A model generated the notes under the pieces. That model ran no database searches and was not told where the DNA came from. It was given only the letters and a program-made list of their open reading frames with translations. Below are positions 2,820-7,252 of a stretch of 7,252 bases of DNA, in pieces (position 1 is the stretch's first letter; each line of letters opens with the position of its first letter). The DNA comes from Gammaproteobacteria bacterium (lineage in GTDB: Bacteria > Pseudomonadota > Gammaproteobacteria > SZUA-229), in assembly GCA_021768055.1 (NCBI GenBank), contig JAASSE010000047.1, forward strand, positions 1-7,252. The letters are read 5' to 3'. Both the position numbers and the translations under genes were made by a program.

Positions 2820-5800
2820 TCAGCCGGTCGCCAGTATCCTGTCGATGCGCTTTTGCATTACGGCATAATAAACCACGGGAATTACCAGCAGCGTTAATAT
2901 TGTTGAAACCAGGATTCCCGAAATCAGCGACACTGCCAGTCCTGAAAAGATCGGGTCATCGAGAATAAAAAATGCGCCCGCCATTGCGGCGACACCGGTC
3001 AGAATAATCGGCTTGGCGCGTACTGCCGCGGAACGTATCACCGCCTGTTCGAATGAAACCCCGGCACGCAGCTCCTGGTTTATGAAATCCACCAGCAGGA
3101 TGGAATTGCGAACGATGATCCCGGCCAGTGCGATCATGCCGATCATCGAGGTTGCGGTGAACTGCTTGTCAGCAATAGCATGGCCCGGGAGAATACCGAT
3201 GATCGTCAGCGGTATCGGCGCCATGATAATCAGCGGGACAACATAGGACTTGAACTGCGCGACCACGAGCAGGTAAATCAACAGCAGGCCGACCGAGTAG
3301 GCAATACCCATATCGCGGAAAGTTTCATAAGTAATTTGCCACTCGCCGTCCCATTTGAAACTGTATTCATACGGATTTTGCGGCGTGTTAACAAAATACT
3401 GCGGCATGCCGATCGCCTGTTCTGCCTTTGTCGCAATATCGAACAGCCCGTACAGGGGACTGTCGGTCTCGCCCGCCATGTCGCCAGTGACGTAAACCAC
3501 GGGTAGCAGGTTCTTATGATAAATGCTGCGTTCCCGCTTGCCTGAGCGCAACGTTACAACTTCAGACAACGGCACCAACGAACCGCTTTGCGAACGCAGC
3601 TCAAGCGACAGTACCTGTTCAATATCCGCCTTGTCCGCTTCCGTATACTCGACTCGAACGGGAACCGCATATTTCGCATCATCCAGGTGCATGTAGGTAA
3701 CATCTTCACTATCCAGTACCGTTGCCAGCGCATCGGTTATCTTTTGCTGCGAGAGACCCAGCAATGCCGCACGACTGCGGTCAATTTCAACGAGTATTTT
3801 CCTTGAAGGCACTTCAACGGAGTCATCGATATCAACTATGTCTGCCGTGCCTTTGAATACCTCGACAAGGCGCTTTGCCTTGTCGATCTGACCTTCATAA
3901 TTTCCGCCGTAAACTTCCGCCACCAGCGGCGCCATGACCGGCGGGCCGGGCGGTACTTCCACGATCCTGGCATTACCCTGGTAACGTTCAGCGATTGACT
4001 GCACAGGCTCTCGTACTGCTAACGCAATCTCGTGGCTCTTGCGGTCACGGTGCTTTTTGTCGACAAGATTGACCTGGATATCGCCAAGGTGATCGTCTTC
4101 GCGCAGGTAATACTGTCGCACCAGCCCGTTAAAGCTGATCGGCGCTGACGTGCCTGAATAAACCTGGTAGTCAACGACTTCGGGTACGGTTGCAAGGTAC
4201 TGGCCGATCTCCTGCAATACGCGCGTTGTCTGCTCAAGGCTGGTGCCTTCTGGCATGTCGAGCACAACCTGGAACTCCGACTTGTTATCGAACGGCAGCA
4301 TTTTCAGGATGACCATACGCCCGGCGATCAGCAGCAGTGACAATGTAATCAATAGCAAGATTGCAGCGAGCAGCCAGCGTCGATTGACGACACCGCTGCG
4401 GCCCGACAGGAACGGCTTGAACACGCCGGAAGCGAACCTGAACAGCCTGTTGTCATCTTCACTTTCATGCTGTGAAGCCTGTGTTTCATGTTCGTGTGCA
4501 ACACCGCTCAGCATGCTGTTGGTCAGCCAGGGGGTGAATACGAATGCAACGGCGAGTGAGATAATCATGCCAAGCGATGCATTGATCGGGATCGGGCTCA
4601 TGTACGGTCCCATCAGTCCGGTGACGAAAGCCATCGGCAGCAAGGCGGCGATAACCGTCAGTGTTGCAAGAATGGTCGGGCCGCCGACTTCATCCACGGC
4701 CGCGGGTATGGCATCGAGCAGGTTTTTAGCACCCATGGTGAGATGGCGGTGAATGTTTTCAACCACAACGATTGCATCATCGACAAGAATACCGATGGAA
4801 AATATCAACGCGAATAATGAAACGCGGTTCAGAGTGAAACCCCAGGCCCAGGATGCAAACAGTGTCATTGCAAGCGTAACAACGATAGCGGCACCAACAA
4901 TAATCGCTTCACGCCAGCCAAGCGCCAATAATACCAGCAGCACCACCGACGCCGTGGCGAACACGAGCTTGTTGATCAGTTTCTTTGCTTTCGAATCGGC
5001 TGTTTCACCATAGTTTCGGGTGATGCTGACATTGATGTTGTCCGGAATATAAATGCCGCGAAGCTGTTCAAACCGCGTTATCACCCGCTGGGCAATTTCG
5101 ACCGCATTGGTTCCGGCCTGCTTGGCAATTGAAATCGTAACCGCTGGCCGTTCATGCACCTGTTCAGCTGAAGAATTATTGATCCCCTGGCCATAATGCA
5201 CGTATTGCGACGGCTGTACGGGTCCATCGATTATGGTCGCGACATCGCTTAAATAAACCGGTCGTCCATCATGAACTGCGACCACAAGCTCAGCAACATC
5301 TTCGGCTGTACAGAAAAATGTCCCGGCTTTGACAAGGATTTCATTATTATCCGCGGTGAAATCCAGCGGGTTTTGTACCTGGTTGCCCGTTTGCAAGGCG
5401 TATCGAAGGCTGTCGATGTCAATTTGATAAGCAGACATGGCTTGTGGGTCGAGTAGTACACGAACTGCGCGCGGTGTGTCCCCGACTGTGGATATATCAC
5501 GCGTACCCTTGACGCGTTTCAACTCGGCCTCAATGGAATGCGCTATCTGCCCCAGTTCATACATGCCGACATCGTCGTCGTCCGACCACAATGTTGCCGT
5601 CACGATCGGCACGTCATCGATACCCTTCGGCTTGATCAGAGGTTGTGCAACACCAAGGTTCGGCGGAAACCAGTCGCTGTTGAGATAAATCTTGTTATAC
5701 AGGCGAACGATGGCCGCGGTCCGGTCTTCCCCCACCTCGAACTGAACAGTCAGGATGGCAAGGCCCGGTTTTGACGTGGAGTAAACATGCTTGACGCCTT

Positions 5801-6053
5801 CAATTTCAGAAAGTACCTGTTCGGCCGGCCCTGCAATCAGGCTTTCAACCTCGGCAGCACTGGCGCCCGGAAACGCAATAAAGACATTTGCAAAGGTAAC
5901 GTTAATCTGCGGCTCTTCTTCACGCGGAGTGATTAAAACCGCGAACACGCCCAGCAAAAAACCGACCAGTGCCAGCAGCGGTGTAATTTCTGTTGTCAGG
6001 AATTGCCTGGCAATGCGCCCGGAAAACCCGACTGAAGCGGAACTGTCATCCAT
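2820..6053 (-). CDS. RND-family efflux permease (AcrB-like inner-membrane pump subunit)
   Basis: This is a proton-driven inner-membrane transporter that captures substrates from the periplasm or membrane and passes them outward via an adaptor and an outer-membrane channel. At 1077 residues it is slightly longer than AcrB (1049). It has TM1 at about 24-41, then TPREEEPQI, a large periplasmic loop to about 360, a TM2-6 bundle (about 362-515), TM7 at about 560-580, a second periplasmic loop with PPGPPVMAPL (701-710), and TM8-12 (about 915-1065). The proton-relay aspartates in TM4 are present (GILVDDAIVV, D425-D426). The AcrB Lys940 position in TM10 is Arg982 (GIIVRNSILLVDF). An acidic, His-containing cytoplasmic linker lies at about 519-535. 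The REEEPQI signature marks a subfamily of uncharacterised AcrB-like pumps, and the substrate cannot be inferred. The start lies 3 bp after the adaptor stop with no strong Shine-Dalgarno, suggesting coupling. Its stop is 2 bp from the convergent sulfurtransferase stop. Confidence 0.95.
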   Translation of the reverse strand: MDDSSASVGFSGRIARQFLTTEITPLLALVGFLLGVFAVLITPREEEPQINVTFANVFIAFPGASAAEVESLIAGPAEQVLSEIEGVKHVYSTSKPGLAILTVQFEVGEDRTAAIVRLYNKIYLNSDWFPPNLGVAQPLIKPKGIDDVPIVTATLWSDDDDVGMYELGQIAHSIEAELKRVKGTRDISTVGDTPRAVRVLLDPQAMSAYQIDIDSLRYALQTGNQVQNPLDFTADNNEILVKAGTFFCTAEDVAELVVAVHDGRPVYLSDVATIIDGPVQPSQYVHYGQGINNSSAEQVHERPAVTISIAKQAGTNAVEIAQRVITRFEQLRGIYIPDNINVSITRNYGETADSKAKKLINKLVFATASVVLLVLLALGWREAIIVGAAIVVTLAMTLFASWAWGFTLNRVSLFALIFSIGILVDDAIVVVENIHRHLTMGAKNLLDAIPAAVDEVGGPTILATLTVIAALLPMAFVTGLMGPYMSPIPINASLGMIISLAVAFVFTPWLTNSMLSGVAHEHETQASQHESEDDNRLFRFASGVFKPFLSGRSGVVNRRWLLAAILLLITLSLLLIAGRMVILKMLPFDNKSEFQVVLDMPEGTSLEQTTRVLQEIGQYLATVPEVVDYQVYSGTSAPISFNGLVRQYYLREDDHLGDIQVNLVDKKHRDRKSHEIALAVREPVQSIAERYQGNARIVEVPPGPPVMAPLVAEVYGGNYEGQIDKAKRLVEVFKGTADIVDIDDSVEVPSRKILVEIDRSRAALLGLSQQKITDALATVLDSEDVTYMHLDDAKYAVPVRVEYTEADKADIEQVLSLELRSQSGSLVPLSEVVTLRSGKRERSIYHKNLLPVVYVTGDMAGETDSPLYGLFDIATKAEQAIGMPQYFVNTPQNPYEYSFKWDGEWQITYETFRDMGIAYSVGLLLIYLLVVAQFKSYVVPLIIMAPIPLTIIGILPGHAIADKQFTATSMIGMIALAGIIVRNSILLVDFINQELRAGVSFEQAVIRSAAVRAKPIILTGVAAMAGAFFILDDPIFSGLAVSLISGILVSTILTLLVIPVVYYAVMQKRIDRILATG

Positions 6054-6056
6054 GCT

Positions 6057-6974
6057 TTAATTGGAACGCTGTTTTGAATTCTGCTGTTTCAGCAAGGCGC
6101 CGGCAGCAACGGGGTCCAGTGCAACCCGTTCGCCGCTCTGCAAACCGGAAAGCACAATGGTTTGCCCCTCTGGTAGATTTCGTCCCTTGCGGATCGCACG
6201 CATACTTACCTTGCCTTCCGGCGTTACAACGTAAACAGCAGTAATCTCTGAACGCCTAACGATCGATTCAGCGGGCACCGTCAGTACCTCGCGGCTGCCC
6301 ACTTCAAACACTGCTTTTACAAACATGCCAGGAAACAGCTTCACACTGTCACCGGTGAAATCGAGACGCACGCGGAAGGTATGGCTGGCCGGTTCTGCGT
6401 ATGGAAAAACGGTTTTACGGTTGACCGGAACAATGGTTCCGTCAGGCGCTTCAACACTGGCGGTTGCTGCCTCTCGAACTGCATTGATCATGCTTTGTGG
6501 CACATCGACGTTGACCCTGAGTTCTTCCAGCGACAGTCCACTGATAAGTTTTTTCCCCGGTTGTGCAGTTTCACCCACCTCGACGAAGCGTCCTGTCATG
6601 ATGCCCGAGTAAGGCGCCCGCACTCGCGTGTACTCGAGATTCTCCTGTGCCTGCTCCAGTCCTGCACGGGCTGAATCCAGCTTGGCACGTGCCGCCTTCA
6701 ACGATGCCTCGGCAGCGTCCATTGCTTTTTTTGATACCGCTTTTTTCTCGTAAACGTCTTTTACCCGCTGATGCTCTGCTTCCGCTTCATTGAGCCGTGC
6801 TTCCGCTTCCTTCAACGCAGCCTGGGCCTGTTTCAGTTTTGCGGCGGGATGCTTGTCATTGAGCTGAACAACAATTTCACCTTTTTCGACGTAATCATCG
6901 ACATCAAACAGTATCGCTTCCACCTGTCCGCTGATTTGCGCAGACACGGTTGTTTTCCTGACTGCTTCTATCAC
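6057..6974 (-). CDS. RND efflux periplasmic adaptor (membrane fusion protein), N-terminus missing
   Basis: The protein links the RND permease to an outer-membrane channel across the periplasm. Visible are the first lipoyl half-motif (about 11-40, SAQISGQV and [11 protein letters not shown]), a long Ala/Glu/Lys-rich coiled-coil hairpin (about 43-115), the second lipoyl half (about 115-145, [16 protein letters not shown]), the beta-barrel (about 147-225) and a membrane-proximal domain to the end. Residue numbers count from GTG 6974, which has no ribosome site and is probably not the real start. Adaptor-like coding continues upstream as PRQYRLDGV to about 6998 before an in-frame TGA at 7007-7005. 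A signal peptide plus about 10-15 mature residues are therefore absent. Neither other minus-strand frame beyond 7000 restores them, so a simple frameshift is unlikely. The missing piece resembles what is encoded on the opposite strand from 7138. The 3' end is intact and lies 3 bp from the permease start. Confidence 0.88.
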
Positions 6975-6997
6975 ACCGTCAAGACGGTACTGGCGCG

Positions 6998-7002
6998 GCG
7001 AT
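6998..7002. other. Probable inverted junction (breakpoint) between opposite-strand genes
   Basis: To the left, adaptor coding runs on the minus strand and loses homology at codons CGC-CCG (about 6998, reading PRQYR downstream). To the right, from about 7002, a coherent plus-strand reading frame begins in mid-gene. Both genes are truncated at the same place and face each other head to head, which is the signature of a join between two inverted segments. The exact base is uncertain because GCGCGGCG (6993-7000) may be shared by both partners as microhomology. Whether it is biological or an amplification/assembly artefact cannot be told from the sequence. Confidence 0.6.
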
Positions 7003-7118
7003 GGTCACCGGAAGTGGCAGATGGCTTTATCAAGGAATCGACCCACCTTGCTATGGATGACATCAAGGATTCGATTGCAGAATTGAAGTATTATCGCGAG
7101 AAGATGTTATCGATATAA
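7002..7118 (+). pseudogene. 3' fragment of an unidentified gene, 5' end lost at the junction
   Basis: The 38 codons before TAA 7116-7118 read as a plausible protein C-terminus, beginning [13 protein letters not shown] and ending [14 protein letters not shown]. They are charged and helix-forming, with no membrane segment. The frame stays open to the left only because it runs antisense through the adaptor gene; there the translation is Phe/Cys-rich and does not look like protein. No start with a ribosome site is visible, although ATG 7053 would give a 21-residue peptide. I do not recognise the family. A local regulator gene preceding an adaptor-permease operon (TetR-type, for example) would fit the position, but no motif here proves it. 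The next gene starts 19 bp after the stop, so the two are probably cotranscribed. Confidence 0.5.
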
Positions 7119-7127
7119 GTCTGCACC

Positions 7128-7130
7128 AGG
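7128..7130 (+). promoter_or_regulatory. Weak ribosome binding site for the gene starting at 7138
   Basis: AGG (within CACCAGG) lies 7 nt before ATG 7138-7140 and 10 nt before the next in-frame ATG at 7141-7143. Either start is possible, and the difference is a single Met. Confidence 0.4.
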
Positions 7131-7137
7131 TTCTCAC

Positions 7138-7252
7138 ATGATGCGAACAACAATCATACGCGTATTTGCTATCGTAACGATTTCATTTAGCGCGTTCTCC
7201 TTAATACAAGCTGCCGAACTCGAAGTGGCTGAAGTTTCATCGAAGATGGCGC
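7138..7252 (+). CDS. N-terminus of an exported protein, probably an RND periplasmic adaptor, cut by window edge
   Basis: Thirty-eight codons are visible. They start MMRTTIIRV, with a positively charged n-region (two Arg), followed by a hydrophobic core (FAIVTISFSAFSLI) and a likely signal peptidase I site after IQAA. The mature protein would begin near AELEVAEVSSKMA. A short mature segment of this sort (a beta strand of the form E-x-x-V-A-E-V) normally precedes the RLDGVIEAV strand in membrane fusion proteins, which is exactly the part lacking in the minus-strand adaptor ending at about 6998. If the two are the same gene, the next residues beyond the window should be PRQYRLDGV. The last bases (GCGC) are compatible with this. 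Alternatives are a paralogous adaptor or an unrelated periplasmic protein. The export signal is clear; the adaptor assignment is inference. Confidence 0.6.
   Translation, partial: MMRTTIIRVFAIVTISFSAFSLIQAAELEVAEVSSKMA

What the first reader, a model, noticed from the sequence alone, without database searches (positions are those of the whole stretch)
6960..7140. Head-to-head truncation of two genes at one point: a fold-back or inversion junction
Seen: the minus-strand adaptor loses its start and signal peptide at about 6998. From about 7002 the plus strand carries the 3' end of another gene whose own start is missing, followed 19 bp later by an exported protein's start. Both genes break at the same few bases and the orientation flips. 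Inference: the native order is [unknown gene]-[adaptor]-[RND], and an inverted copy was joined across a loop of about 250 bp (7002-7252). That geometry is typical of multiple-displacement-amplification or assembly chimeras, but a true inverted duplication would look the same. If it is an artefact, annotations of this locus in databases would inherit a false truncated adaptor.
Basis: partly seen in the sequence, partly recalled or inferred. Interest (0 to 1): 0.75.

Follow-up and report, generated by a model that had tools for sequence, protein, structure and literature searches.

The report
Assembly fold-back at a contig end
The last 250 bases of this bacterial contig run backwards relative to five related genomes, splitting two ordinary genes at a 12-base stretch that they nearly share, so the two broken genes are most likely a copying or assembly artefact and not a real feature of the organism.

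Summary
The window is a whole 7252-bp contig (G000:C19) of an incomplete 347-contig assembly. The "unknown gene" at 7002-7118 is the 3' end of orn (oligoribonuclease); the "exported protein" at 7138 is the truncated efflux adaptor's own missing N-terminus. Four of six congeners carry orn > adaptor > RND collinearly; a fifth contig begins in orn's last nine codons with the same order; in the sixth neither gene was found. None is inverted. Contig C340 of the same assembly holds orn residues 1-170, running natively across the break (87/91 identical). The break lies in 12 nt nearly shared by both genes (11/12). Residue counts close exactly: 12 at the contig end plus 3 from 6998 equals the 15 of five relatives, so the contig stops where a fold-back would re-enter itself. 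An in-vitro snap-back chimera carried into the assembly fits best. A natural inversion or inverted duplication is not excluded without reads. No biological novelty; useful as an annotation warning.

The parts
6057..6998 (-). Body of an RND efflux periplasmic adaptor, lacking the signal peptide and first 38 codons
   Evidence: Open frame; TIGR01730 217.4 bits vs cut-off 94.9; Pfam HlyD_D23; orthologues 67-78% identical in five congeners
6989..7000 (.). Junction: 12-nt stretch nearly shared by the adaptor (antisense) and orn (sense); 11/12 identical to orn on contig C340
   Evidence: alignments to G002 from both sides overlap at 6990-7001; >=11/12 at a fixed register in 2 of 400,000 random pairs
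7001..7118 (+). 3' end of orn (oligoribonuclease), with THLAMDD at 7041-7061; the 5' part lies on contig C340
   Evidence: orn matches in G000 are C340 (residues 1-170), C19 (residues 140-182) and one weak partial hit on C156; C340 part 274.8 bits as oligoribonuclease vs cut-off 106
7138..7252 (+). Start of the adaptor gene: signal-peptide-like segment and first 38 codons, running off the contig end
   Evidence: Aligned with the N-termini of five congeners' adaptors, where the shared part is mainly the ELE motif; ELE-to-YRLDG spacing 12 + 3 = 15, as in all five
7250..7252 (.). Contig end; its last 3 bases are the reverse complement of 6998-7000, so a fold-back arm would begin here
6771..7118 (+). 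Spurious 115-aa ORF: antisense of the adaptor fused to the orn tail
   Evidence: upstream of the junction orn continues differently on C340
2820..6053 (-). RND permease gene next to the adaptor, frame intact
   Evidence: Pfam ACR_tran; collinear with the adaptor in relatives

Best explanation
The end of this contig carries a strand-flip junction, where the 250-bp stretch that joins orn to the efflux-adaptor gene runs opposite to its direction in related genomes, and most likely this is a fold-back made in the test tube, not in the cell. Shown: the order in congeners is orn > adaptor > RND permease; the window joins the antisense adaptor to the sense end of orn at a nearly shared 12-nt sequence; the sense strand then runs into the adaptor's true start and stops exactly where it would re-enter the adaptor body. 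Inferred: a strand end annealed through this 12-nt inverted pair, about 250 nt apart, and was extended back over the adaptor (either the antisense-adaptor end priming at orn, or the orn end snapping back onto the adaptor; both give the same double strand), during amplification or library end repair. Inferred: the assembler followed the chimeric branch and stopped when the path met its own, already used, reverse complement.
For: Order orn > adaptor > RND in G002, G003, G004, G006 and in G001, whose contig begins in the last nine codons of orn: 5 of 6 congeners informative, 0 inverted; G005 shows neither gene. Contig C340 of the same assembly carries orn residues 1-170 and crosses the junction point in native order, 87/91 identical. 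Junction stretch 11/12 against C340, with identity ending at its left edge. Spacing 12 + 3 = 15 residues, as in five of five relatives. Orn Ala codon to adaptor Pro codon: 259 bases in the window if the Pro codon starts at 7252 (my arithmetic), against 265 and 261 in the two of five relatives the script could measure. Published MDA chimeras: 406 of 475 inverted, 337 of these within 10 kb, priming at complementary stretches of up to 21 nt (PMC1855051, parts 1-2 of 4 read). Library chimeras at natural near-perfect inverted repeats (PMC10908179, passages).
Against: No reads, coverage or sample history were available, so a natural rearrangement is not excluded, and whether the sample was amplified is unknown. 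No other fold-back was seen in the 19 other own contigs with more than one piece aligned to G002 (42 of 347 contigs examined, 26 aligned, 20 with more than one piece; 58% of G002 taken). C340 differs at 4 of 91 positions, 3 synonymous, so it may come from another strain and does not prove the order in the strain of C19. The native loop-to-adaptor join is on no own contig. A DNA comparison of 6980-7252 with five relatives matched only the orn part, in four of them; the N-terminus rests on the ELE motif and spacing. Lasken and Stockwell exclude hairpin self-priming as a major MDA route, so one of my two strand versions is the less usual there. A plain de Bruijn contig should share more than 3 nt at such an end (recalled); no exact end overlaps of 15-250 nt occur among the 42 contigs, so ends may be trimmed.
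Confidence: 0.77

Rival explanations
1. A true inverted duplication in some cells: the chromosome snapped back at the 12-nt inverted pair and copied the adaptor-RND segment in reverse, so that an intact adaptor follows the contig end.
For: Same geometry and same junction sequence. Fold-back inverted duplications in human genomes and palindrome-driven ones in E. coli are described (search listing only). The cell would keep an intact adaptor.
Against: Loop 7080-7252 and the close adaptor orthologue occur once in the assembly, though an assembler would collapse a second copy, so this is weak. Not seen in congeners. Orn would be whole only if a native copy is kept as well.
Confidence: 0.06
2. A true small inversion of about 250 bp between the two 12-nt inverted stretches, fixed or flipping in the population; antisense 5' orn would follow the contig end.
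For: Both break points fall in the nearly shared 12 nt (inferred).
Against: It would cut the last 40 or so residues from Orn, with THLAMDD, which holds a catalytic His and Asp in DEDDh nucleases (recalled), and cut the adaptor from its signal peptide. No recombinase among the ten proteins scanned. Congeners lack it. Twelve nt is short for a site-specific switch (recalled).
Confidence: 0.05
3. A pure assembly or gap-closing error without any chimeric molecule: a 250-bp piece was placed in reverse by a 12-nt overlap.
For: The piece begins and ends within a few bases of the break points; contig ends lack overlaps.
Against: A 12-nt overlap is below the k-mer sizes of usual assemblers (recalled), so a read across the junction would normally be needed.
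Confidence: 0.12

Closest known systems
Inverted chimeras of multiple displacement amplification (Lasken and Stockwell 2007, PMC1855051; parts 1-2 of 4 read)
   Same: Inverted join of two segments under 10 kb apart with the stretch between skipped, at a short complementary sequence within the published 2-21 nt
   Different: Whether this sample was amplified is unknown; no further fold-back in the contigs that could show one
Library-preparation chimeras at natural inverted repeats (PDSM model, PMC10908179; passages read)
   Same: Near-perfect short inverted repeat (their finder asks for 8 bp or more) with the sequence between the repeats appearing reverse-complemented
   Different: Described there as low-frequency reads in human libraries, not as the path taken in a bacterial assembly
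Natural fold-back or palindrome-driven inverted duplications (search listing only)
   Same: Fold-back geometry around a short inverted repeat
   Different: No second arm is held on the contig; congeners and contig C340 show the native order

Membership tests
In-vitro snap-back / MDA inverted chimera | Two nearby segments joined in opposite orientation | tested here: met
   Opposite orientation on G002, about 140 bp between the aligned pieces
In-vitro snap-back / MDA inverted chimera | Short complementary sequence at the junction | tested here: met
   11/12 identical at 6989-7000 against C340
In-vitro snap-back / MDA inverted chimera | Native order exists in relatives or in the same data | tested here: met
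   5 of 6 congeners; orn side on C340; the native loop-to-adaptor join is on no own contig
In-vitro snap-back / MDA inverted chimera | Further chimeras elsewhere in the assembly | tested here: inconclusive
   None in the 19 other own contigs with more than one aligned piece; 42 of 347 contigs examined, 58% of the reference taken
In-vitro snap-back / MDA inverted chimera | Amplified sample; chimeric reads in the minority | not testable with these tools
   No reads or sample record
Invertible DNA switch | Substantial inverted repeats and a recombinase nearby | tested here: not met
   Similarity of the two break points ends at the left edge of the 12-nt stretch; no recombinase among the ten proteins scanned
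Natural inverted duplication | Second arm present after the loop | tested here: inconclusive
   Contig ends 3 nt into the would-be arm
RND periplasmic adaptor (TIGR01730) | Curated score cut-off | tested here: met
   217.4 bits against 94.9, body only
Oligoribonuclease (Orn) | Curated score cut-off, C340 part | tested here: met
   274.8 bits against 106

The most novel reading that the evidence does not exclude
A living subpopulation carries this 250-bp inversion, so that a 12-nt inverted pair between an RNase gene and an efflux operon switches both genes off at once.
Probability: 0.05. Interest if true: 0.5.

Novelty: not a real feature. Interest (0 to 1): 0.12.

Why it matters
It warns that the truncated adaptor, the 115-aa ORF at 6771-7118 and the headless orn of this assembly should not be read as biology. 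It also gives a general check: a contig end that lands exactly on a strand-flip break point, at a short nearly shared sequence, points to a fold-back.

Tried and rejected
Invertible switch: no suitable repeats, no recombinase among the proteins scanned. Decay of the adaptor gene: rejected, because its N-terminus lies 140 bp away on the other strand and the residue count closes. The 115-aa plus-strand ORF as a real fusion protein: rejected, since orn continues differently on C340. Strand folding of 6900-7252: no better than shuffles, z 0.53; this is the window's arrangement, not the native one, so it says little. Self-complementary stretches in 42 own contigs: single palindromes of 25-39 nt in eight contigs and spaced short pairs in C23 and C28; none is like this junction. 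Of the 42 contigs, 16 had no match to the G002 stretches; five distant order breaks were not followed. Base composition, a tRNA scan and a defence-gene scan gave nothing that bears on the question. A paper search for such errors in metagenome assemblies listed two papers, neither on the subject by title and abstract start.

Full report
What the window is. The window is the whole contig C19 (7252 bp) of an assembly of 1,640,888 bp in 347 contigs, listed as 69.7% complete. It is unnamed. The five closest named relatives by the adaptor are titled as metagenome-assembled Gammaproteobacteria, one as Thiotrichales. Genes: start of an rpoE-like gene (named by resemblance, not tested), nadB, a rhodanese with two matched stretches, then on the minus strand an RND permease and its adaptor.

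The observation. The adaptor's minus-strand frame begins abruptly at 6998 with PRQYRLDG. From the same few bases the plus strand carries the end of another protein up to a stop at 7116-7118 and, 19 bp later, a signal-peptide-like start at 7138 that runs off the contig.

Identity of the pieces. The plus-strand tail is oligoribonuclease (orn). Contig C340 of the same assembly holds orn residues 1-170 and overlaps window 6989-7079 with 87 of 91 bases identical; that part scores 274.8 bits as oligoribonuclease against a cut-off of 106, and the full Orn of congener G004 matches solved oligoribonucleases. Of the four differences three are synonymous and one is Ile/Thr, as between strains; one of the synonymous ones lies in the 12-nt junction stretch and may reflect the adaptor's base. 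The start at 7138 is the adaptor's own N-terminus. In the alignment with five congeners the shared part is mainly the ELE motif, and a DNA comparison of 6980-7252 matched only the orn part, in four of five relatives. What decides is spacing: from ELE to YRLDG all five have 15 residues, and the window has 12 up to the contig end and 3 from 6998. So nothing is missing between 7252 and 6998.

Native order. One search covered 58 relatives, six of the same genus. G002, G003, G004 and G006 have rsgA, pcd, a small exported protein with CxxCH and an M48 protease facing away from orn > adaptor > RND. G001's contig starts in the last nine codons of orn (read by eye) and continues adaptor > RND; no other orn was found there. 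In G005 neither orn nor a close adaptor was found. None of the informative congeners is inverted.

The junction. Against G002 the two sides align in opposite orientations and overlap at 6990-7001. That is the stretch ACTGGCGCGGCG, 11 of 12 identical to orn on C340. At a fixed register 2 of 400,000 random pairs are as alike. Three such pairs, this one included, exist between window 6057-7000 and the C340 part of orn, so such pairs are not rare here; but the junction sits exactly on one. The last three bases of the contig are the reverse complement of 6998-7000. That the adaptor's own sequence extends through the stretch is inferred from the conserved residues of the relatives and from these last three bases.

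Mechanism (inferred). A strand end annealing through this inverted pair and extended back would join antisense adaptor to sense orn, read through the loop into the adaptor start, and then re-enter the adaptor body exactly at 7252, where the contig stops. This matches the published form of MDA chimeras (PMC1855051, parts 1-2 of 4 read) and of library chimeras at inverted repeats (PMC10908179, passages). The first paper excludes hairpin self-priming as a major MDA route and favours priming on nearby displaced strands. Which route operated, or whether a gap-closing step misplaced the piece, cannot be told.

Why not natural. An inversion would cost Orn about its last 40 residues, with THLAMDD at 7041-7061, which holds a catalytic His and Asp in this family (recalled), and the adaptor its signal peptide. 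An inverted duplication would keep one adaptor; no second copy is in the assembly, but a second copy would be collapsed by an assembler, so this is weak. Reads would decide.

Results against. This is the only fold-back found: 42 of 347 own contigs examined, 26 aligned to the 1,618,000 bases of G002 taken, 20 with more than one piece, 32 of 84 contig ends covered within 150 bp. A general amplification problem is therefore not shown. C340 may be from another strain. The near-absence of overlap at the contig end is unusual for a plain de Bruijn contig (recalled); none of the 42 contigs share exact end overlaps of 15-250 nt.

Odds. The artefact readings together (in-vitro chimera 0.77, pure assembly error 0.12) are 0.89.

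Noticed in passing
L003 (G000:C340) 3201-3291 vs window 6989-7079: Two versions of the orn tail in one assembly, 4 differences in 91 bases, three synonymous: probably a strain mixture.
   Followed up: partly
L035 (G001:C36), 3219 bp: A congener's contig also ends in the last codons of orn, about 166 bp upstream of the adaptor body: another assembly break near the same spot.
   Followed up: no
L036, L037, L038, L039: Shared gene order in the genus: rsgA, pcd, small exported CxxCH protein, M48 protease facing away from orn-adaptor-RND; orn lies upstream in only 4 of 73 adaptor loci, each with at most about 3 kb upstream.
   Followed up: partly
L039 8333-9331: In G006 about 1 kb lies between the RND gene and nadB, with no match to the window's rhodanese.
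   Followed up: no
window 2820-6053: The RND permease scores high on Pfam ACR_tran but below the cut-off of each of the 15 NCBIfam models listed for it, so its subfamily and substrate are open.
   Followed up: no
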